NCBI RefSeq assembly: GCF_036226465.1
Contig: NZ_CP108476.1
Location: 3,968,001 to 4,032,000 of the forward strand
Reading direction: 5' to 3'
DNA from: Kitasatospora sp. NBC_01250
GTDB taxonomy: Bacteria > Actinomycetota > Actinomycetes > Streptomycetales > Streptomycetaceae
Length of the DNA stretch: 64,000 bases
Of the stretch, positions 1-15,012 are shown in pieces. Position 1 is the first letter of the stretch. Each line of letters starts with the position of its first letter. A program made the position numbers and the translations under genes. The notes beneath the pieces were generated by a model. The model made no database searches, was not told where the DNA came from, and saw nothing but the letters and a program-made list of their open reading frames with translations.

Positions 1-353
1 TCTGTGCTGCCGACGAGATGTTCCCGTCAGTGGCCTCACCGCCGTTCGCCACGGTCTTCTCCATGCCGCAGTGGGGATACAGCCTCACCAAGACGCTCGT
101 TCACGCCCGACTCGGCGATGTCGAGCAGTCGCAGCGGGAGCAGGACACCGCCGACCGGCTGAGGCCCGGCGGCCTCGGCCGGTTCGCGGCTCACACGAGC
201 GTTCACCGAGCACTGTCGTTCGTGAAGTCCGGAGACGTCGGTGTCGGCCTTGAGCTGGCCCGGAGAACCGTGGCCGAGCTGCCGGCCGAGCAGCGGAGCA
301 AGGTGCTCGGTGGCTTCGTCGCGGAGGTCAAAGCCGCCGCCCGGGCCACCTGA
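1..353 (+). CDS. 3' end of a hypothetical protein, possibly the TPR-like tail of a regulator (partial)
   Basis: The frame is open from the window edge to a TGA at 351-353, so the N-terminus lies outside. About 117 residues are visible. The sequence is alpha-helical in character (LVHARLGDVEQSQ, ALSFVKSGDVGVGLELARR), resembling the tetratricopeptide-like C-terminal half of Streptomyces XRE-family regulators. An internal ATG at 18 could start a shorter product, but the open upstream frame argues for truncation by the window. It converges on the minus-strand WGR gene with only 14 bases between the stops. No DNA-binding part is visible, so function is inferred only from resemblance. Confidence 0.6.
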   Translation, partial: CAADEMFPSVASPPFATVFSMPQWGYSLTKTLVHARLGDVEQSQREQDTADRLRPGGLGRFAAHTSVHRALSFVKSGDVGVGLELARRTVAELPAEQRSKVLGGFVAEVKAAARAT

Positions 354-367
354 CCCGGCTGATCCGG

Positions 368-1804
368 TCAGCTCAGCCGCTTGATCTCGCCGCGCGCCCG
401 GTAGAAGCCGCCGCGCTCGGAGGCGCGCACCTCGGTGACCAGGTAGCGGGCGCCGGGCACCCGGATGTCCTTGGGGAACTGGACCCGCCAGCTCGGGTCG
501 TACCCGGCCGTGACCACCCGGATCCGGGTGCGCGCGCCGTCCTGGACGCACTCCACCTCGACGCCGCCCTGCGCGCCGGTCACCCACTCGATCTCGGTGC
601 TGGGGGCGACCCGCGTCAGGCTGCCCGCCTTGACGTCGGCGGTCTGCGGCAGCCGGCCGCCCTCGGCGTCCTGGACGGCGGTGTCGCTCACGTCCAGGCA
701 GGCCAGCGAGCCGTCGGTGGTGACCAGGTAGAGCCGCCCGGCGCGGTACTGCATGCTGTACGCCGAGCCGCAGCCGGTGGCCAGCTTCCACAGCCGGCGG
801 CCGTCGGCGGCGAAGCAGTAGACCGACGAGGAGCTGTCCCCGGCGAAAACGAGGCGGCCGTCCGGCGAGGCGGCGCAGGAGTAGACGGCCGCGTCGCAGC
901 GGTAGCGGGCGAGCTCCGCGCCGTCGGTCTTGGCCAGGCGGTGCACCCAGCCGCGGCTGGTGCCGGCGAAGACCTCCTCGCGCTCCTGCCAGCCGAACAG
1001 CACCTCGCCCTCGGTCCGGGTGTGCCAGCGCTGGTCGCCGCTGCGCGACTCGTAGCGGGTGACGCCGGTCGAGTAGCCCTGGTAGACGCCGTCCGGGTCG
1101 CAGCGCACCATCCAGGCCGAGCTGCCGCGGGTGGCCCGTCGCCACTGGAACTCGTCCTCGTGGTCGACGGTGGTGATGCCGCCCTGGGCGTCGGAGACGC
1201 CGAGCACGCCGTCGTGGATGTCCAGCCAGTAGATGTCCACGTCGGAGGCGATCTCGTAGGCCACCCGCGGGACCTTGCCGCCCAGGTCGTAGACCCGGCC
1301 GTCGTCGCAGCCGGCGTAGATCCAGGAGTCGTCCCCGACGATGCACTTGACGCCGTCCGGCAGCCCGAAGCGGCCGGTCACCACGCCGTCGTGGGTCAGG
1401 GTGTAGACGTCACCGGACTCGTTGCCGACCCATGCCTGCTCCTCGTCGACGAAGATCCCGAAGGCCGGGGCGCCCGAGCGGAACCGCCACAGCACCGGGG
1501 CCTGGCGGGCCGTGGAGCGGGTGCTGACCATCTCCCGGCGGGTCACCGCGCGGCGCTGGCGCTCCCCGCGCCGGGCCGGGGCGTAGCCCTTGCGGACCTT
1601 CTCCCCCACCTTCTTGGCGGCCGCGGCGGCGGCCTTCTCCACCGTCGGGTACGAGGTGCTGCGCACCTGCCCCGCCTCGCCGATCCGCCCGTAGCTGACG
1701 GTCAGCTCGGTCCCGGCCTGGCGGACCTCGTAGAACTTGTGCGCGCTGCCCTGCTCCTCGGAGAGTTCGAGGTAGGTGACCTGCTCGGCGACGGCAGTGG
1801 ACAT
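368..1804 (-). CDS. WGR domain protein with PQQ/WD-like beta-propeller
   Basis: 478 residues. The ATG at 1804 is chosen because a GGGAGGG ribosome site lies 5 bases upstream; longer in-frame starts read into low-complexity sequence. Residues about 10-80 form a WGR domain (VSYGRIGEAGQV; the usual W is Y), followed by a basic Ala/Lys/Arg-rich linker. From about 105 to the end come repeated blades (AWVGNESGDVYTL, WIYAGCDDGRVYDLG, VFAGDSSSSVYCF, LYLVTTDGSLACL). WGR domains bind nucleic acid in eukaryotic PARPs; bacterial roles are poorly known. No signal peptide or enzyme motif was seen, so it is probably a cytosolic binding or scaffold protein. Confidence 0.8.
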   Translation of the reverse strand: MSTAVAEQVTYLELSEEQGSAHKFYEVRQAGTELTVSYGRIGEAGQVRSTSYPTVEKAAAAAAKKVGEKVRKGYAPARRGERQRRAVTRREMVSTRSTARQAPVLWRFRSGAPAFGIFVDEEQAWVGNESGDVYTLTHDGVVTGRFGLPDGVKCIVGDDSWIYAGCDDGRVYDLGGKVPRVAYEIASDVDIYWLDIHDGVLGVSDAQGGITTVDHEDEFQWRRATRGSSAWMVRCDPDGVYQGYSTGVTRYESRSGDQRWHTRTEGEVLFGWQEREEVFAGTSRGWVHRLAKTDGAELARYRCDAAVYSCAASPDGRLVFAGDSSSSVYCFAADGRRLWKLATGCGSAYSMQYRAGRLYLVTTDGSLACLDVSDTAVQDAEGGRLPQTADVKAGSLTRVAPSTEIEWVTGAQGGVEVECVQDGARTRIRVVTAGYDPSWRVQFPKDIRVPGARYLVTEVRASERGGFYRARGEIKRLS

Positions 1805-1863
1805 CAAGCCCTCCCGGGGCGTTCGGTGTTGGGAACAAAGTAGCGAACGGGACTGACAACTCC

Positions 1864-4050
1864 TCAGGCCGCGGCGGGCACCAGCGCCACCGGCTCCCCG
1901 CTCTGCTCCGCGCCCTGCTCCCCGCCCTGCTCCGCGCGCCGCTCCTCGCGCAGCCCGTAGCGGGCGTGCAGGCGCCGCAGCGGCGCCGGCGCCCACCAGG
2001 CCGCGCGGCCGAGCAGCGCCATGGTGGCGGGCACCAGCAGCATCCGCACCACGGTCGCGTCGATCAGCACGGCAAGGCTCAGCCCCAGGCCGATCTGCAG
2101 GATCTGGCCGAAGCCGCTGGTCATGAAGGCGGCGAAGACGATCAGGATCAGCGCGGCGGCGCTGGTGACGATCCGTCCGGTCCGCGCCAGACCGGTGACC
2201 ACCGCGGTCTTCGGGTCACCGGTGCGCAGCCACTCCTCGCGGACCCGGGCCAGGATGAAGACCTCGTAGTCCATCGCGAGCCCGAAGGCGATCGCGGCGA
2301 TCAGCGGCAGCGCCACCAGGTCGAGCGCGCCCATGCCCTCGCCGCCGAGCAGGCCGGCGCCGTGGCCGTCCTGGAAGACCAGCGTGGTGATGCCCGCCGC
2401 GGCGCCCAGCGACAGTGCGGTGGAGAGCACCGTCTTGACCGGGATCAGGAGCGAGCCGGTGAAGGCGAAGAGCAGCAGCAGGATCCCGCCGACCACCACG
2501 GCCAGCGCGCCGGGCAGCCCGTCGACGAGCATCTGCTGGAAGTCGGCCACCCGGGCGGCGGTGCCGCCGACCGCCACGGCCAGGCCGGGGTGCGTGGTGC
2601 GCAGGGTGTGCACCAGGGCGAGCGCGGTGGCGTCGTCGCTGCCGCCGGTGGGGACGAGCTGGAGCTCGGTGGTCCCGTCGGGCAGGGTGGCGAGGTGGGC
2701 GGCCGAGACCTGGGGCAGCGCGCGGGCCCGGTCGGCGAAGGCGTCGTAGGCCGGTCCGTGACCGTCCAGCAGGACGACGACCGGGTCGGCGCCCGAGAGC
2801 TGCGGGAAGTGCGCCTGGAGTGCCTGGTGGGCGAGCCGGCCGTCCGAGCCGGCCGGCAGGTAGCGGGCGTCGCCGGAGGTGGTGCGCAGGCCCGCCAGCG
2901 GCAGGGCGAGCGCGGCCAGCGCGGCGGTGATGGTGACGGCGACCAGCAGCGGGCGCGAGGTGGCCAGGCGGGCGATCCGGGCGAAGCCGCGGCCCGCGGT
3001 GGGCTTCGGCTCGCGCAGCCGCAGCCGGTGGCCGAACCGCGCCAGCACGGCCGGGACCAGGGTGACGGCGGCGGCCATGTCGATCAGCACCACGGAGGCG
3101 GCGGCCAGGCCCATGCTGCGCAGGAACGGGCTGTCGAAGGCGAGCAGGCCGCCGAGGCAGACCGCGACGGTCAGGCCGGAGAAGAAGACGGTGCGGCCGG
3201 CGGCGTGCACGGTCCGGGTGACGGCGAGCGCCGGGTCCGGGGTGTGGCGGCGCTCCTCGCGGAAGCGGTTGATCACCAGCAGCGCGTAGTCGATCGCCAG
3301 GCCCAGCCCCAGCATCGTGGTGACCTGCAACGAGGAGGCGCTGATCTCGGTGAACTCGGAGACCGCCAGCAGGCTCAGGAAGGTCCCGCCGATCCCGCAG
3401 AAGGCGACCAGGACTGGCAGCCCCGCTGCCAGCAGACCGCCGAAGACCAGCAGGCAGAGCAGCAGCACCAGCGGCAGCGAGACCAGCTCGGCGCGGCCGA
3501 CGCCCTCCTTGCCGGCCTCGTTCATCTGCTGGCTCAGCAGCGGTCCGCCGCTGACCTGCAGGTGCGTGGCGTGCAGCTGGCGCAGCCGCGCCTCGGCCCC
3601 GTCCTGGGCGGCCTGCTGGTCGTCGTCCGAGAGGCCACCGGCGAGGGTGACCGGGAGGATCAGGGCCTGGTGGTCGGCCGACACCCCGCTGCCCTGGCGG
3701 TACGGATCGGCGACCGCCGCGACGCCGGGCATCGCGCCGAGGTCGCGCACCGCGGCGGCGATCTGGGCCCGGAAGGCCGGGTCGGTGACGTCCTGCCCGG
3801 AGAGCACGGCGCTGATCGTGCCGCCGTCGGTGGCCCCCTGGAGCCGGTCGAGCCGGTCGGCCACCCGGTGCGACTCACTGCCGGGGACGGAGCCGACCGA
3901 CCCGGTCATCCGGGTGGCGCTGATGCCGCTGAGGCCGAAGCCGAGCAGGATCACGGCGAGCCAGGCGAGCAGGACGGCGATCGGGTGACGCGTGGTCACC
4001 CTGGCGAGGAGCGAGGTCATGGCCGTAACCCTGCCGGTGGGGGCGGTCAT
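1864..4050 (-). CDS. MMPL family (RND-type) membrane exporter
   Basis: 728 residues, normal for single-chain actinobacterial MMPL proteins. Membrane segment 1 (about residues 22-44) is followed by an extracytoplasmic loop to about 185, a bundle of helices to about 355, another helix near 370, a second large loop to about 510 and a final helix bundle ending near 690. The duplicated RND architecture and the segments GLAIDYALLVINRFREE and GLAMDYEVFILARVREEW are family hallmarks. Such proteins export lipids or hydrophobic compounds using proton motive force; the substrate here is unknown. An alternative ATG lies at 4020. It sits directly downstream of the two-component pair, suggesting it is a target or partner of that system. 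Confidence 0.9.
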   Translation of the reverse strand: MTAPTGRVTAMTSLLARVTTRHPIAVLLAWLAVILLGFGLSGISATRMTGSVGSVPGSESHRVADRLDRLQGATDGGTISAVLSGQDVTDPAFRAQIAAAVRDLGAMPGVAAVADPYRQGSGVSADHQALILPVTLAGGLSDDDQQAAQDGAEARLRQLHATHLQVSGGPLLSQQMNEAGKEGVGRAELVSLPLVLLLCLLVFGGLLAAGLPVLVAFCGIGGTFLSLLAVSEFTEISASSLQVTTMLGLGLAIDYALLVINRFREERRHTPDPALAVTRTVHAAGRTVFFSGLTVAVCLGGLLAFDSPFLRSMGLAAASVVLIDMAAAVTLVPAVLARFGHRLRLREPKPTAGRGFARIARLATSRPLLVAVTITAALAALALPLAGLRTTSGDARYLPAGSDGRLAHQALQAHFPQLSGADPVVVLLDGHGPAYDAFADRARALPQVSAAHLATLPDGTTELQLVPTGGSDDATALALVHTLRTTHPGLAVAVGGTAARVADFQQMLVDGLPGALAVVVGGILLLLFAFTGSLLIPVKTVLSTALSLGAAAGITTLVFQDGHGAGLLGGEGMGALDLVALPLIAAIAFGLAMDYEVFILARVREEWLRTGDPKTAVVTGLARTGRIVTSAAALILIVFAAFMTSGFGQILQIGLGLSLAVLIDATVVRMLLVPATMALLGRAAWWAPAPLRRLHARYGLREERRAEQGGEQGAEQSGEPVALVPAAA

Positions 4051-4081
4051 CGCGGATCACCCGGCCGAGCGGTCCGCCAGC

Positions 4082-4099
4082 CTCCCCCGCAGGGGGGAG
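4082..4099. promoter_or_regulatory. Palindrome site A (CTCCCCC-N4-GGGGGAG)
   Basis: Seven-base arms CTCCCCC (4082-4088) and GGGGGAG (4093-4099) with a 4-base spacer lie between the response regulator stop and the exporter start. Similar sites recur at 6050-6068 and 6903-6922. It could be a response-regulator operator, or the hairpin of a terminator after the regulator, although no T tract follows. Confidence 0.45.
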
Positions 4100-4128
4100 A
4101 CGGGCGGCGGTCCTTCGGCGGACGGGGC

Positions 4129-4809
4129 TCAGCCCTCGCCCGCCACCACCGCGCCCGCCTCGTAGGCGAAGACCACCGCGTGCACCCGGTCGCGCAGCTG
4201 GAGCTTGCTCAGCACGTTGCTGACATGGGTCTTGACGGTGTGTTCGCTGACCACCAGCTCGGCGGCGATCTCCGCGTTGGAGCAGCCGCGGGCGATCAGC
4301 CGCAGCGTCTCCTGCTCCCGGATGGTCAGCTGCTCCAGCAGCCTGGACGGCGCGCGCACCGCCGCGCCCGGGCCCGTCGGGCGGCGCGCCGAGAACTCGC
4401 TGATCAGGCGCTTGGTGACGGAGGGCGCCAGCAGCGCCTCCCCCGAGGCGACCAGCCGCACGCCGTGCGCGAGGTCGTCGCGCCGCACGTCCTTGAGCAG
4501 GAAGCCGCTGGCCCCGGCGTACAGCGCGTCGTAGACGTAGTCGTCGATGTCGAAGGTGGTCAGCATGATCACCTTGGTCGCCGGGTACTCGGCGCAGACC
4601 CGGCGGGCCGCCTCCAGGCCGTCCATCACGGGCATCCGGACGTCCAACAGCAGCACGTCCGGGCGGTGCTCGGCCACCACCTCGACCGCCTCCTGACCGT
4701 TGGCCGCCTCCGCCACCACCTCGATGTCGGGCTGGGCGTCCAGGATCATCCCGAACCCGGCCCGCACCAGCTCCTGGTCGTCGGCCACCACCACGCGTAT
4801 CACGGACAT
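4129..4809 (-). CDS. NarL/FixJ-type response regulator
   Basis: 226 residues. The ATG at 4809 is preceded by GAGGGAGCGGGG. The receiver domain covers about 1-120, with acidic residues in VVVADDQE, the phospho-acceptor Asp56 in VLLLDVRMP, T in MLTTFD and the conserved Lys in GFLLKDV. A LuxR-type helix-turn-helix covers about 158-222 (LTIREQETLRLIARGCSNAEIAAEL, HTVKTHVSNVLSKL). It follows the histidine kinase gene by 17 bases and is certainly its partner. Likely targets are the adjacent exporter and lipoprotein genes, inferred from shared palindromes. Confidence 0.95.
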   Translation of the reverse strand: MSVIRVVVADDQELVRAGFGMILDAQPDIEVVAEAANGQEAVEVVAEHRPDVLLLDVRMPVMDGLEAARRVCAEYPATKVIMLTTFDIDDYVYDALYAGASGFLLKDVRRDDLAHGVRLVASGEALLAPSVTKRLISEFSARRPTGPGAAVRAPSRLLEQLTIREQETLRLIARGCSNAEIAAELVVSEHTVKTHVSNVLSKLQLRDRVHAVVFAYEAGAVVAGEG

Positions 4810-4826
4810 CCCCGCTCCCTCGTCAC

Positions 4827-6041
4827 TCAGCTCGCCGCCCCGAGCGGCAGCCGCGCCGTCACCACGAAACCCCGCCCGTCCGGCGCCGGGCCGGCCGCGG
4901 CCCGGCCACCGCAGGCCGCCGCGCGCTCCCGGATCCCGACCAGCCCCCGGCCGCCGGACCAGCCCGCCCCGCCGTCCGGCCGGCGCGGCTGCCGGCCGCG
5001 CTCGTCGAGCCCGTGCCCGTTGTCGCTGACCGCCAGTTCGAGCGCCTGGCCCACCTCGGCGATCCGCACCTCGGCCGCGTCCGCGCCGGAGTGCTTGACG
5101 ATGTTGGTCAGCGCCTCCTGGACGATCCGGTAGGCCGCCGTCTCCACGTCGGCCGGCAGTACCGAGGCCCGCTCGGGCAGCACCAGCCGCACCGCCACGC
5201 CCGCCAGCGTCATCCGCTCGGCCACGGCGGCGAGCTCGGGCAGCCTGGGCTGCGGGGCGAGCTGCGGGCCCGCGCCGTCCTCCTTGAGCACGCCCAGCAC
5301 TCGGCGCAGTTGCACCATGGCGTCGCGCCCCGAGTCGGCGATGGTGTCGAAGGCCTTGATCGCCTTCTCCGGGTCGGCGCGCACCACCAGCGGGCCCGCC
5401 TCGGCCTGGATCACCATCAGCGCGACGGCGTGCGCCAGGATGTCGTGCATCTCCCGGGCGATCCGCCCGCGCTCCTCCGCGACCGCGCGCGCCGCGTCGC
5501 TGGCCGCGCGCAGCCCGGTCTCGCGCGCCCGGTCGGCCTCCACCCGGGCCAGCCGGCGCAGCTCGCGCACCGCGGTGCCGAGCGCGAAGGAGCCGAGCAC
5601 GGTGAGTTCGCTGAAGATCATCCCGTCCAGCGAGCGGGTGCCCAGCACGTTGGCCGGCACCAGGACCGCCAGCATCAGCCAGCGCTGCCAGTTCTCCCCC
5701 AGGTCGGCCAGGGTGTAGATGGCGACGACTCCGTAGACCGGGAGCTGCGGCTGGGCGGAGTGCGCGAACACCCCGAGCGCCCCCGAGAGCAGCACGGTGG
5801 CCAGGAAGGCCGCGGCCGGCGCCTTGCGCCGCCAGGGCAGCGGCAGCGAGCAGCCGGCGGCCAGCAGGTAGGTCCACAGCGGCCAGTGCGTCCCGTCGTT
5901 GTGGACCGCCCAGAGCGAGACCGCCACCGAGACCAGCGCGATCAGGCCGTCCACCACGTACGGGTTGATCCCGGCCAGCCGCCCGCGCAGCCACCGCTCC
6001 CGTTCGGCCAGCCACTCCTGGCTGCGCGTCATCGCTTCCAT
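4827..6041 (-). CDS. DesK/NarX-type sensor histidine kinase
   Basis: 404 residues from the ATG at 6041, chosen for the GGAGGGG ribosome site just upstream; a longer frame to 6170 runs into the preceding gene end and is unlikely. The N-terminal 155 residues hold four to five membrane helices with very short loops, implying that stimulus is sensed in or at the membrane. A HisKA_3 domain follows, with phospho-acceptor His199 in REMHDILAHAV, then an ATPase domain (EALTNIVKHSG N-box, SDNGHGLDE, GRGLVGIRERAAACGG). It forms a two-gene unit with the response regulator. LiaS/DesK-like intramembrane sensing of envelope stress is a reasonable guess. Confidence 0.93.
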   Translation of the reverse strand: MEAMTRSQEWLAERERWLRGRLAGINPYVVDGLIALVSVAVSLWAVHNDGTHWPLWTYLLAAGCSLPLPWRRKAPAAAFLATVLLSGALGVFAHSAQPQLPVYGVVAIYTLADLGENWQRWLMLAVLVPANVLGTRSLDGMIFSELTVLGSFALGTAVRELRRLARVEADRARETGLRAASDAARAVAEERGRIAREMHDILAHAVALMVIQAEAGPLVVRADPEKAIKAFDTIADSGRDAMVQLRRVLGVLKEDGAGPQLAPQPRLPELAAVAERMTLAGVAVRLVLPERASVLPADVETAAYRIVQEALTNIVKHSGADAAEVRIAEVGQALELAVSDNGHGLDERGRQPRRPDGGAGWSGGRGLVGIRERAAACGGRAAAGPAPDGRGFVVTARLPLGAAS

Positions 6042-6049
6042 CCGCGCCC

Positions 6050-6068
6050 CTCCCCCGTTCGGGGGGAG
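6050..6068. promoter_or_regulatory. Palindrome site B (CTCCCCC / GGGGGAG)
   Basis: CTCCCCC at 6050-6056 and GGGGGAG at 6062-6068 with a 5-base spacer, immediately upstream of and partly overlapping the ribosome site region of the histidine kinase gene. It has the same arms as the sites at 4082 and 6903. Binding here would fit autoregulation of the two-component genes; as RNA it could also mask the ribosome site. Confidence 0.45.
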
Positions 6069-6117
6069 CCTATCGGCACAGGTCAACAGGTCGTGGACGG
6101 GCTGCAGCCGGTCCACC

Positions 6118-6798
6118 TCAGGCATGCGCGACGGTGACGTTGCCGGTGTCGGACTCGGCGTCGATCGCATGGCCCGAGGCGGCGTCCTGTGCGACCGTCA
6201 CCTTGACGCTGCCCGTGTCGGCCGTGGCCTTGACGGCGTAACCGCCGGCCGGCACGACCACCTTGACGTTGCCGGTCGAGGTCTTCGCGGTCACCGAGCC
6301 CGGCACACCGGTGAAGGTCGCGGAGACGTCCCCGGTGGACGAGCCGAGGCTGGCGCTGGCGCTGCTGAGGTTCACGCCCTCGACCGAGCCGGTACCGGTG
6401 TCGGCCCGCACCCCCGCGCTCAGCCCGGACAGGTGCACGTCGCCGGTGCCCGCGCTGACCTTGACGTCCGTGCCCGCCGGGACGTCGACCTCGTAGTCGA
6501 TCCCGCAGTCGTCGTGGCAGGTGTAGGTGAGCGTGAGGGTGCCGTCGGCCACCGTGTGCGTGCTGGTGGGCGCCTTGCTGTCGTAGTTCTGGTGCTCCAC
6601 CACGTGCACCCCGGTGCCGGCCCCGACCACCCGGATGTTGCCGGTCTTCCCGTTGACCACCAGGGCGTGCACCGGCTGGTCGATCCCGTAGCCGACGACG
6701 CTGTGCTGCTGCCCGTCGAAGAAGCAGCCGGACATCCCGAAGACGACGAAGCCGGTGATCGCGGTGCAGCCGAGCAGCCGGGTCAGGCGCTGGTTCAT
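6118..6798 (-). CDS. DUF4097-like adhesin-type lipoprotein
   Basis: 226 residues from the ATG at 6798, with GGGGGA 8 bases upstream. The N-terminal hydrophobic stretch (residues about 8-24) ends in the lipobox-like MSGC, so Cys25 is probably lipidated. The rest is a repetitive beta-helix: short strands with a recurring TGxV step (TGNIRVV, TGDVHLSG, TGSVEGV, TGDVSATF, TGNVKVV, TGSVKVTV, TGNVTVA). This is the DUF4097 pattern, common near envelope-stress two-component systems. It lies just upstream of the kinase gene on the same strand, so it is likely co-regulated. Biochemical function is unknown. Confidence 0.85.
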   Translation of the reverse strand: MNQRLTRLLGCTAITGFVVFGMSGCFFDGQQHSVVGYGIDQPVHALVVNGKTGNIRVVGAGTGVHVVEHQNYDSKAPTSTHTVADGTLTLTYTCHDDCGIDYEVDVPAGTDVKVSAGTGDVHLSGLSAGVRADTGTGSVEGVNLSSASASLGSSTGDVSATFTGVPGSVTAKTSTGNVKVVVPAGGYAVKATADTGSVKVTVAQDAASGHAIDAESDTGNVTVAHA

Positions 6799-6881
6799 CT
6801 GAGGTGTCCCCCTGTGCCGTGGGCCCGGACCATCCGGACCGACCCCCTCAGCCTGCCCGCCCGACCCCCGCCGCGGGATCG

Positions 6882-6922
6882 CTCCCCCGAGCGGTTTGCC
6901 CGCCTCCCCCGCGCGGGGGAGG
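6882..6922. promoter_or_regulatory. Palindrome site C with adjacent CTCCCCC half-site
   Basis: A perfect 20-base self-complementary element, CCTCCCCCGC followed by its reverse complement, spans 6903-6922. Another CTCCCCC occurs at 6882-6888, 22 bases away (two helical turns). It lies 105 bases upstream of the lipoprotein start and is separate from the rpoC terminator at 6941-6991, which makes a regulatory role more likely than termination. Confidence 0.5.
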
Positions 6923-6940
6923 CCGCCCGCGAGCGCCCGG

Positions 6941-6991
6941 GAACGCCGCTGGGCGGCCACCCCGGAAAGGGGTGACCGCCCAGCGGTGTTC
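6941..6991 (-). terminator. rpoC terminator hairpin
   Basis: A 23-base inverted repeat with two mismatches (arms beginning GAACGCCGCTGGGCGG, loop GGAAA) starts 8 bases after the rpoC stop. It has no T tract, as is common for actinobacterial terminators. It marks the end of the rpoBC transcript. Confidence 0.75.
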
Positions 6992-6998
6992 GGACCAC

Positions 6999-10904
<3,906 letters not shown>

Positions 10905-10968
10905 TGGTCGTCAAGCCCTCTTTCGTAAGTCGAAAGTCGTTCATCTGGTCTGAGGGGGGCCTGGGGGC

Positions 10969-10997
10969 GGGCCGGCCGCTGGATCAGCGGCCGGCCC
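10969..10997 (-). other. Perfect hairpin in the rpoB-rpoC gap
   Basis: Arms GGGCCGGCCGCTG (10969-10981) and CAGCGGCCGGCCC (10985-10997) form 13 perfect pairs around a 3-base loop, starting 8 bases after the rpoB stop. There is no T tract and rpoC has no evident promoter, so an RNA stability or processing element, or a partial terminator, is more likely than full termination. Confidence 0.55.
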
Positions 10998-11005
10998 GGC
11001 CTCCG

Positions 11006-14479
<3,474 letters not shown>

Positions 14480-14617
14480 GAGGGGGGTCCTTCCGAGGGC
14501 TCGGAGCTCACTGCGCGCGTACCGGCCGGGCCTTGCCGAGGGGGGAAACCCCAGGTCAGGGCAGCGCACACTCCGGGCGACGAGTCACGGAGCAGCTAAC
14601 AGGCAGCGCAAAGGGAC

Positions 14618-14646
14618 AGTGTAGCCAAACGGCACACTGCTGTCCA
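14618..14646 (-). promoter_or_regulatory. Predicted rpoB promoter
   Basis: On the minus strand, TGGACA (14641-14646) and TACACT (14618-14623) are separated by exactly 17 bases, a good housekeeping sigma (HrdB) match. Transcription would start near 14611, giving a leader of about 130 bases before the TTG start. Confidence 0.7.
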
Positions 14647-14651
14647 GCCCT

Positions 14652-14668
14652 GATTCGGAGACCGAATC
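14652..14668. promoter_or_regulatory. Inverted repeat abutting the rpoB promoter
   Basis: GATTCGG (14652-14658), spacer AGA, CCGAATC (14662-14668): a perfect 7-base inverted repeat ending 6 bases upstream of the -35 box. The position suits an activator or upstream element; the binding factor is unknown. Confidence 0.4.
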
Positions 14669-14740
14669 GGACACTCCCTACTGCTCGTCCTGCCACTGCG
14701 CACTGCAGCGGTGCCCAACCTCGCCTGAGGCCGGCACCGC

Positions 14741-14754
14741 GACTCACGTGAGTC
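14741..14754. promoter_or_regulatory. 14-bp perfect palindrome in the rplL-rpoB gap
   Basis: GACTCACGTGAGTC reads the same on both strands, about 95 bases upstream of the rpoB -35 box. The remaining roughly 600-base gap (14480-15076) has no coding frame I can support. It otherwise contains the rpoB promoter, the upstream inverted repeat and the rplL terminator. Confidence 0.35.
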
Positions 14755-15012
14755 ATTTCCCGCCGCGACCCCGGGTTATGCATCCGGGGACACTCAAACT
14801 AACGGCCAACCGCCCTCACGGTGTCGGCGCGCGACTTGAGAATCGCGCGCCGCGTGCCGTTCGTCAAGGCCCGGCCGAAGCGCGGACCTCGCACTCTTCA
14901 TCGCTCTGCGCCCCCACCGCGTTACACCGGACCTGTCGGCGGCCGTGGCTGCCCGGTCGATGATCAACGGCATCGAACGTGATCACCTTACCGGCCCGCA
15001 CCGACACAAAAG

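What the first reader, a model, noticed from the sequence alone, without database searches (positions are those of the whole stretch)
4082..6922. Repeated CTCCCCC/GGGGGAG palindrome marks a possible two-component regulon
Near-identical palindromes lie before the exporter gene (4082-4099), the kinase gene (6050-6068) and the lipoprotein gene (6903-6922, plus a half-site 22 bases away). All flank one two-component system and its neighbours. The third site is separate from the rpoC terminator, so it is not simply termination. This would be an undescribed operator if the NarL-type regulator binds it. Each could alternatively be a hairpin ending the preceding gene.
Basis: partly seen in the sequence, partly recalled or inferred. 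Interest (0 to 1): 0.62.

Follow-up and report, generated by a model that had tools for sequence, protein, structure and literature searches.

The report
Promoter switch of an envelope-sensing system
Two of the three palindromes are parts of a conserved promoter element that a bacterial sensor-regulator pair most likely uses to switch on cell-envelope genes in soil actinobacteria; the third, in front of the sensor gene, is a different and less conserved thing.

Summary
The palindromes are real. In the 9.0-Mb genome (a Kitasatospora) the exact pattern occurs at 10 places, 3 of them within this 2.8-kb locus. They are not equivalent. The exporter site (4082-4099) and the lipoprotein site (6904-6921) open an ~80-bp promoter module: palindrome, weaker copy 26 bp on, CAGNNT -10-like box. 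The module precedes the lipoprotein gene in 48 of 49 Kitasatospora loci and follows the regulator gene in 41 of 61; reversed-sequence control 0. It tracks its target gene: 40 of those 41 loci carry one membrane-protein family there (the exception is this genome, with an MMPL exporter), and in six species where that gene lies elsewhere the module lies there too. It recurs beside related systems before MMPL exporters of Streptomyces and in other genera. All 61 genomes with the kinase give a module hit; 5 of 9 without it give none. Conservation fits a DNA-binding site, not a hairpin. Best reading: operator of the NarL-type response regulator, which activates envelope genes. Binding is inferred, not shown. 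The kinase-gene palindrome (6050-6068) overlaps the ribosome-binding site and is kept, with 6-base arms, in 6 of 61 loci.

The parts
4082..4099 (-). operator site 1 of the exporter promoter, CTCCCCCCTGCGGGGGAG
   Evidence: (module match 4023-4102, E 3.6e-13)
4056..4073 (-). second, weaker copy (site 2), 26 bp from site 1
4028..4033 (-). -10-like CAGGGT of the exporter promoter; implies a leaderless start at ATG 4020
   Evidence: start inferred
1864..4020 (-). MMPL-family exporter; the ORF opens at 4050, but a start at 4020 fits the promoter and the N-termini of the out-of-genus homologues better
   Evidence: (PF03176, E 1.1e-78)
4129..4809 (-). NarL/LuxR-type response regulator
   Evidence: Response_reg, GerE
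4827..6041 (-). sensor histidine kinase (HisKA_3, DUF7134), probable start ATG 6041
6050..6068 (-). 19-bp palindrome in the kinase leader, overlapping the Shine-Dalgarno sequence (6049-6056) and touching TAGGCT (6067-6072); not part of the module
6118..6798 (-). lipoprotein-like DUF4097 (toastrack) protein
   Evidence: PF13349, E 1.7e-8; lipobox by eye
6850..6855 (-). -10-like CAGGCT of the lipoprotein promoter
6878..6895 (-). second copy (site 2), ACCGCTCGGGGGAGCGAT
6902..6923 (-). operator site 1 of the lipoprotein promoter (18-bp core 6904-6921)
   Evidence: module match 6839-6924, E 6.5e-13
6941..6991 (-). separate long hairpin behind rpoC, likely its terminator; not part of the operator
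   Evidence: z -7.2

Best explanation
The exporter and lipoprotein sites are operators of the neighbouring NarL-type response regulator. Each belongs to a promoter module: an 18-bp palindrome (general form CTC-N-C-Y-CGYRCGR-G-N-GAG), a weaker copy 26 bp downstream abutting the -35 region, and a CAGNNT -10-like box. The phosphorylated regulator most likely binds as one or two dimers, centred near -70 and -44, and activates envelope genes: the toastrack lipoprotein, and an MMPL exporter in this genome or a small membrane protein in most relatives. Shown: the sequence, its conservation, its linkage to target genes and its co-occurrence with the system. Inferred: which protein binds, that binding activates, the -10 and start positions, and the envelope-stress role. 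The kinase-gene palindrome is not this module; it may serve autoregulation at the transcription start or only be a local hairpin over the ribosome-binding site.
For: Conservation: module before the lipoprotein in 48 of 49 loci and after the regulator in 41 of 61, reversed control 0; a model trained only on after-regulator copies finds 24 of the 48 lipoprotein copies, one trained only on lipoprotein copies gives 32 after-regulator hits. Site 1, site 2 and the -10 box hold about 1.0-1.35 bits per column, the flanks 0.1-0.2. Co-occurrence: all 61 Kitasatospora genomes with the kinase at E 1e-60 have a module hit at E 0.01; of 9 without, 5 have none and 4 have 1-2; those 9 hold regulators at most 64% identical. 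Linkage to target: 40 of 41 after-regulator modules precede one membrane-protein family, 40 of 42 loci with that gene there have the module, and six species with the gene elsewhere have the module there. Of the eight module hits outside the locus at E 1.1e-6 or better, six precede this family, one a beta-lactamase-fold protein (L127) and one is the rpoC-side lipoprotein of the kinase-less G050. Other genera: 27 of 50 loci searched have a hit at E 1e-3, among them Streptomyces, Sphaerisporangium, Blastococcus, Nonomuraea, Nocardia, Actinomadura, Yinghuangia, before MMPL, beta-lactamase-fold, Lnt-like or the same membrane protein. DNA recognition rather than pairing: in 22 such copies CTC is invariant and GAG differs in one letter, yet position 4/15 pairs in only 6.
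Against: No binding or expression data. The genome has 8 other NarL-type regulators at E 1e-60, and a paralogous system has a CTCCCCCGATCGGGGGAG site beside it, so a paralogue could bind or share the site. G050 keeps a module that lacks only one base of the left arm, without a close regulator. L062 and L071 carry the membrane-protein gene without a module at E 1e-3 (L062 has one at 1e-5). In 23 of 50 other loci there is no hit at E 1e-3, and in L171, L180, L192 and L197 the gap between the two copies is longer, so the geometry is not fixed everywhere. The model was built from copies preselected for GGGGGAG, and the 22 outside copies were found with that model, which favours its conserved letters. 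The -10 box and starts are by eye.
Confidence: 0.82

Rival explanations
1. The palindromes are RNA hairpins: terminators or attenuators ending the preceding gene.
For: Single strands of all three fold better than shuffles (z -3.8, -1.8, -1.9), each lies behind a stop codon, and the genome has look-alike terminator stems.
Against: No T-run at any of the three; rpoC has its own much stronger hairpin (z -7.2); 23 of 43 lipoprotein-side and 15 of 37 regulator-side copies hold a pair that is neither Watson-Crick nor G-T; position 4/15 is free while the outer letters are fixed; conserved promoter-like sequence follows; the element also occurs before target genes elsewhere in the genome.
Confidence: 0.06
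2. The module is bound by a different regulator (a paralogous NarL-type regulator or a global one), and its place beside this system is inherited synteny.
For: Many close paralogues; a paralogous system with a similar palindrome; weaker module-like hits before other membrane proteins.
Against: The best two matches in the genome are both at this locus, nearly nine orders of magnitude ahead of the third; co-loss with this kinase and regulator; the nearest relatives of the system outside the genus also have the module beside them.
Confidence: 0.1
3. The kinase-gene palindrome (6050-6068) is a true third operator, for autoregulation at the transcription start.
For: Same arms; lies directly behind TAGGCT; six loci keep it with 6-base arms and all six are exactly 19 bp; out-of-genus kinase promoters carry a related element, CTC-N-CACCGGTGAG exactly in 4 of 10 loci and a near form in 4 more (by eye).
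Against: The other 55 of 61 loci lack 6-base arms; the right arm is the Shine-Dalgarno sequence, which alone can explain its presence in 44 of 61 leaders; 19-bp spacing; the module model does not find it. A common RNA fold is not supported either: 29 of 61 leaders gave 3 predicted pairs and no compensatory change.
Confidence: 0.4

Closest known systems
LiaFSR / VraTSR cell-envelope stress systems of Bacillota
   Same: NarL-type regulator, HisKA_3 kinase, a DUF4097/toastrack protein beside it, envelope-type targets; NCBIfam matches of the lipoprotein and kinase include LiaG and LiaS
   Different: All matches are far below family cut-offs; no LiaF or LiaI among the four genes scanned; the toastrack protein looks like a secreted lipoprotein; LiaR/VraR boxes as I recall them are unlike this palindrome
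AbrB1/B2 of Streptomyces coelicolor (passages of PMC7581861 seen)
   Same: NarL-type system described as VraRS/LiaRS homologue
   Different: The authors report finding no motif for its regulated genes; orthology to the present system not tested
MacRS of Streptomyces coelicolor (passages of two reviews seen, PMC9739842 and PMC10345050; original paper not held)
   Same: Regulator with a defined consensus that controls membrane proteins and lipoproteins
   Different: Kinase matches MacS only at E 0.0048, far below the cut-off; its consensus, recalled as TGAGTAC-NN-GTACTCA, differs
CIRCE / HrcA operator of groES
   Same: GC-rich palindrome matched by the same pattern in this genome
   Different: Different flanks and gene (identification from recall)

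Membership tests
Operator of a NarL/LuxR-type response regulator | two-fold symmetric site in front of genes next to the regulator | tested here: met
Operator of a NarL/LuxR-type response regulator | site co-occurs with the regulator across species | tested here: met
   61 of 61 genomes with the kinase against 4 of 9 without
Operator of a NarL/LuxR-type response regulator | direct binding by the regulator | not testable with these tools
   needs footprinting or ChIP-seq
Lia/Vra envelope-stress system | LiaF or LiaI-LiaF-TM protein in the operon | tested here: not met
   Pfam scan of the four genes only
Lia/Vra envelope-stress system | kinase and toastrack protein reach the family cut-offs | tested here: not met
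   LiaG 27 of 285 bits, LiaS 42.8 of 450 bits
Lia/Vra envelope-stress system | induction by cell-wall antibiotics | not testable with these tools
   none
Intrinsic terminator | stem followed by a T-run | tested here: not met
   the one site found in 3900-7100 is at 6728-6740, none at the palindromes
MacRS regulon | kinase is MacS by NCBIfam cut-off | tested here: not met
   16.1 of 300 bits

The most novel reading that the evidence does not exclude
The module defines an undescribed regulon spread across actinobacterial families: one NarL-type two-component lineage with a CTCNCYCG-YR-CGRGNGAG box whose promoter unit serves unrelated envelope genes (MMPL exporters, a small membrane protein, toastrack lipoproteins, beta-lactamase-fold hydrolases, Lnt-like acyltransferases), so that the box predicts a shared envelope-stress response and its effectors.
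Probability: 0.5. Interest if true: 0.72.

Novelty: new member of a known kind. Interest (0 to 1): 0.58.

Why it matters
Few operators of Streptomyces-type NarL regulators are known, and the signals of most such systems are unknown (both recalled). A reliable box lets the regulon be read from sequence in many actinobacteria, points to MMPL exporters, small membrane proteins and beta-lactamase-fold hydrolases as outputs, and offers promoter reporters for finding the signal. I found no description in ten full-text searches of an open-licence library; most subscription papers are not held there.

Tried and rejected
Rejected: terminator reading. Rejected: a genome-wide repeat family; only 10 places, the other 7 of mixed nature. 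Not supported: a conserved hairpin in the kinase leader; 29 of 61 leaders (those a pattern picked) gave 3 predicted pairs and no compensatory change. No Rfam match at gathering score in 1-15000. The 2-mismatch scan of the window is not significant.

Led nowhere: a pattern meant to cover both copies had the wrong spacing and missed even the known places; the broader box CTCNCYCGYRCGRGNGAG gave 4 places in the genome, of which the two not seen before are one inside a large coding sequence and one in the gap between two divergent genes. The membrane-protein family has no Pfam match above cut-off in the three members scanned whole and one N-terminal piece. A search for that gene in this genome found nothing, without a positive control in that call.

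Corrected on the way: my notebook speaks of a 22-bp distance between the copies; searches give 26 bp. My first count of the kinase-leader palindrome, four loci by eye from the 50 printed, was too low; one search gives 2 of 61 with 7-base arms, 6 with 6-base arms, 10 with 5-base arms.

Dropped rows: eight pattern hits inside the regulator's coding sequence were set aside by the script, and 11 more (kinase leaders, coding sequence, overlapping second copies) were removed by hand before the 80-copy set. The 80 copies were preselected for GGGGGAG. For the model 65 of 80 were kept by an 88% identity limit. Of the 90 loci L154-L243, 50 were searched; 21 loci with hits were examined for genes, and 22 site-1 copies tabulated (hits that reach model position 5 or lower, E up to 4e-4, one per locus).
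Full report
Setting. The window is part of a 9.0-Mb single-contig genome. The five genes concerned lie on the minus strand in the order rpoC, DUF4097 lipoprotein, histidine kinase, NarL-type regulator, MMPL exporter.

Observation. The three palindromes exist. A loose scan of the window is not significant, but exact palindromes are rare, 10 in 9.0 Mb, and three in 2.84 kb is a 7-in-200,000 event for ten random places. The other seven places are, by my reading of the context, a groES CIRCE element, two terminator-like stems between genes, a transposon-like hairpin, two sites inside coding sequence, and one site beside another NarL-type system.

Comparative test. The kinase has an orthologue in 61 of 70 Kitasatospora genomes at E 1e-60. 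In these loci the two outer sites open a longer conserved element. Its consensus reads CTCCCYCGYRCGGGGGAG, 8 bases, ACCGCTC-GGGCGGG-N-GATCC, about 20 bases, CAGGCT. The second block resembles the first at an offset of 26 bp: 11.0 of 18 letters identical on average, against at most 8.1 at other offsets from 18 to 35 (the picking pattern allowed about 20-28). Information is 1.3 bits per column in site 1, 1.0-1.2 in site 2, 1.0 in the -10-like box and 0.1-0.2 in the flanks (part of site 1 was preselected). A profile finds the module before the lipoprotein in 48 of 49 loci (in L032 the contig starts inside the lipoprotein gene) and after the regulator in 41 of 61; reversed sequences give none. The one hit classed as kinase promoter is L019, which has no recognisable lipoprotein gene and holds the module some 150-240 bases before the kinase.

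Link to genes. Of the 41 loci with the module after the regulator, 40 have a gene of one small membrane-protein family there; the exception is the present genome, where the MMPL exporter takes that place. Forty of the 42 loci with that gene there have the module. In G051, G061, G005, G020, G056 and G019 the stretch held behind the regulator has neither gene nor module; the same family (62-82% identical to the two reference members) lies elsewhere, near an HNH-like gene by eye, and the module precedes it there (E 7e-11 to 1e-6). For the other species without the gene behind the regulator I did not look further, this genome apart. Two Kitasatospora genomes also have the module before beta-lactamase-fold proteins (L127, E 2.8e-10; L137, E 3.1e-5). 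The element thus goes with the target, as an operator acting in trans would.

Link to the regulator. A sequence-only covariance model found the module at E 0.01 in 65 of 70 genomes: all 61 with the kinase and 4 of the 9 without. Those nine hold regulators at most 64% identical. Lipoprotein matches of 48-51% identity remain in G043 and G050, weak ones (25-34%) in G038, G048, G053, G055 and G058, none in G022 and G066. In G050 the module before a shortened lipoprotein gene is nearly whole, one base short in the left arm, as after a recent loss of the system; in G043 it is decayed. Within this genome the exporter and lipoprotein promoters score E 3.6e-13 and 6.5e-13, the next place 3.6e-4.

Other genera. 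At E 1e-70 the kinase is found in 10 of about 136 family genomes outside the genus, at 46-50% identity, with a regulator at 69-72%. In eight of these ten, all of one unnamed genus, an MMPL gene follows, with the module before it (E 4.9e-10 to 7.3e-6); the other two (L154, L162) have no clear module. Including these ten, 50 loci were searched: 27 have a hit at E 1e-3, 23 have not. Named hosts of hits include Streptomyces, Sphaerisporangium, Blastococcus, Nonomuraea, Nocardia, Actinomadura and Yinghuangia. The genes behind the module are MMPL proteins (Pfam: L179, L243, L188, L178), beta-lactamase-fold hydrolases (L169, L171, L197, L192), Lnt-like proteins (L203, L202), or the same small membrane-protein family (L183 and L206, 35-44% identical to the Kitasatospora ones); L178 has its hit at E 0.002. 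The rest of the 21 examined I named by eye or not at all. Not all these systems are orthologues of the present one, so the box may belong to a wider NarL-type lineage. In L171, L180, L192 and L197 the gap between the copies is longer. Over 22 copies the box is CTC-N-C-Y-C-G-Y-R-C-G-R-G-N-G-A-G; the outer letters hardly vary while position 4/15 pairs in only 6 of 22, which fits protein contacts better than a hairpin (the copies were found with the Kitasatospora model).

The kinase site. The 6050-6068 palindrome has 7-base arms in 2 of 61 loci, 6-base arms in 6 (all 19 bp) and 5-base arms in 10. Its right arm is the Shine-Dalgarno sequence and its left arm touches a -10-like TAGGCT. Many relatives have another leader with CATGAT and an ACGGGGGAGG ribosome site, without a supported common fold. 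It may be an autoregulatory site or a chance use of the ribosome-binding site; I leave it open.

Mechanism, most likely. An envelope signal activates the kinase; the regulator dimer binds site 1 and, more weakly, site 2 next to the -35 region, and recruits RNA polymerase to promoters without a consensus -35 and -10 of their own (one search finds none). The exporter is then probably leaderless, its ATG at 4020 lying eight bases behind CAGGGT. The lipoprotein could act as sensor or buffer; toastrack proteins are proposed to assemble signalling complexes in Lia- and Psp-type systems (passages of PMC11237479). That paper argues such domains are intracellular; this one looks like a lipoprotein.

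Literature. Ten searches gave no description of this box. Passages seen: PMC9739842, PMC7581861, PMC10345050, PMC11237479. The LiaR, VraR and MacR boxes are recalled, not retrieved.

Noticed in passing
window 4020-4050: The exporter ORF opens at ATG 4050, upstream of the -10-like box; homologues and promoter position favour ATG 4020 and a leaderless transcript.
   Followed up: partly
G000:C1:2574376-2574448 (L147), with relatives L138 and L144: Another NarL-type two-component system has CTCCCCCGATCGGGGGAG beside its kinase gene in three species seen: a possible sister operator.
   Followed up: partly
G000:C1:6622719-6622788 (L146); L143, L134, L139, L140, L135, L136, L142, L145: Weaker module-like sites, some with slightly shorter spacing, lie before several other small membrane proteins and one kinase-regulator pair.
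   Followed up: partly
L126, L128-L132; after the regulator in 42 Kitasatospora loci; L183, L206: Small membrane-protein family with a YGxIR motif, no Pfam match above cut-off in the members scanned, linked to NarL-type systems in Kitasatospora, Actinomadura and Nonomuraea.
   Followed up: partly
L127 (G033:C25:67600-72600) and L137 (G056:C13:109300-114300): Kitasatospora beta-lactamase-fold proteins with the module in front, the target type also seen in Streptomyces.
   Followed up: partly
G003:C13:185007 and similar places in G002, G004, G005, G013: A distinct CTCCCCCACTGCCC-containing palindrome recurs in several Kitasatospora genomes.
   Followed up: no
G000:C1:681858-681881 (L150): Long perfect hairpin CTCCTCCCCCGGCTGAAGCCGGGGGAGGAG inside inverted TACGTGA/TCACGTA flanks, transposon-end-like.
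   Followed up: no
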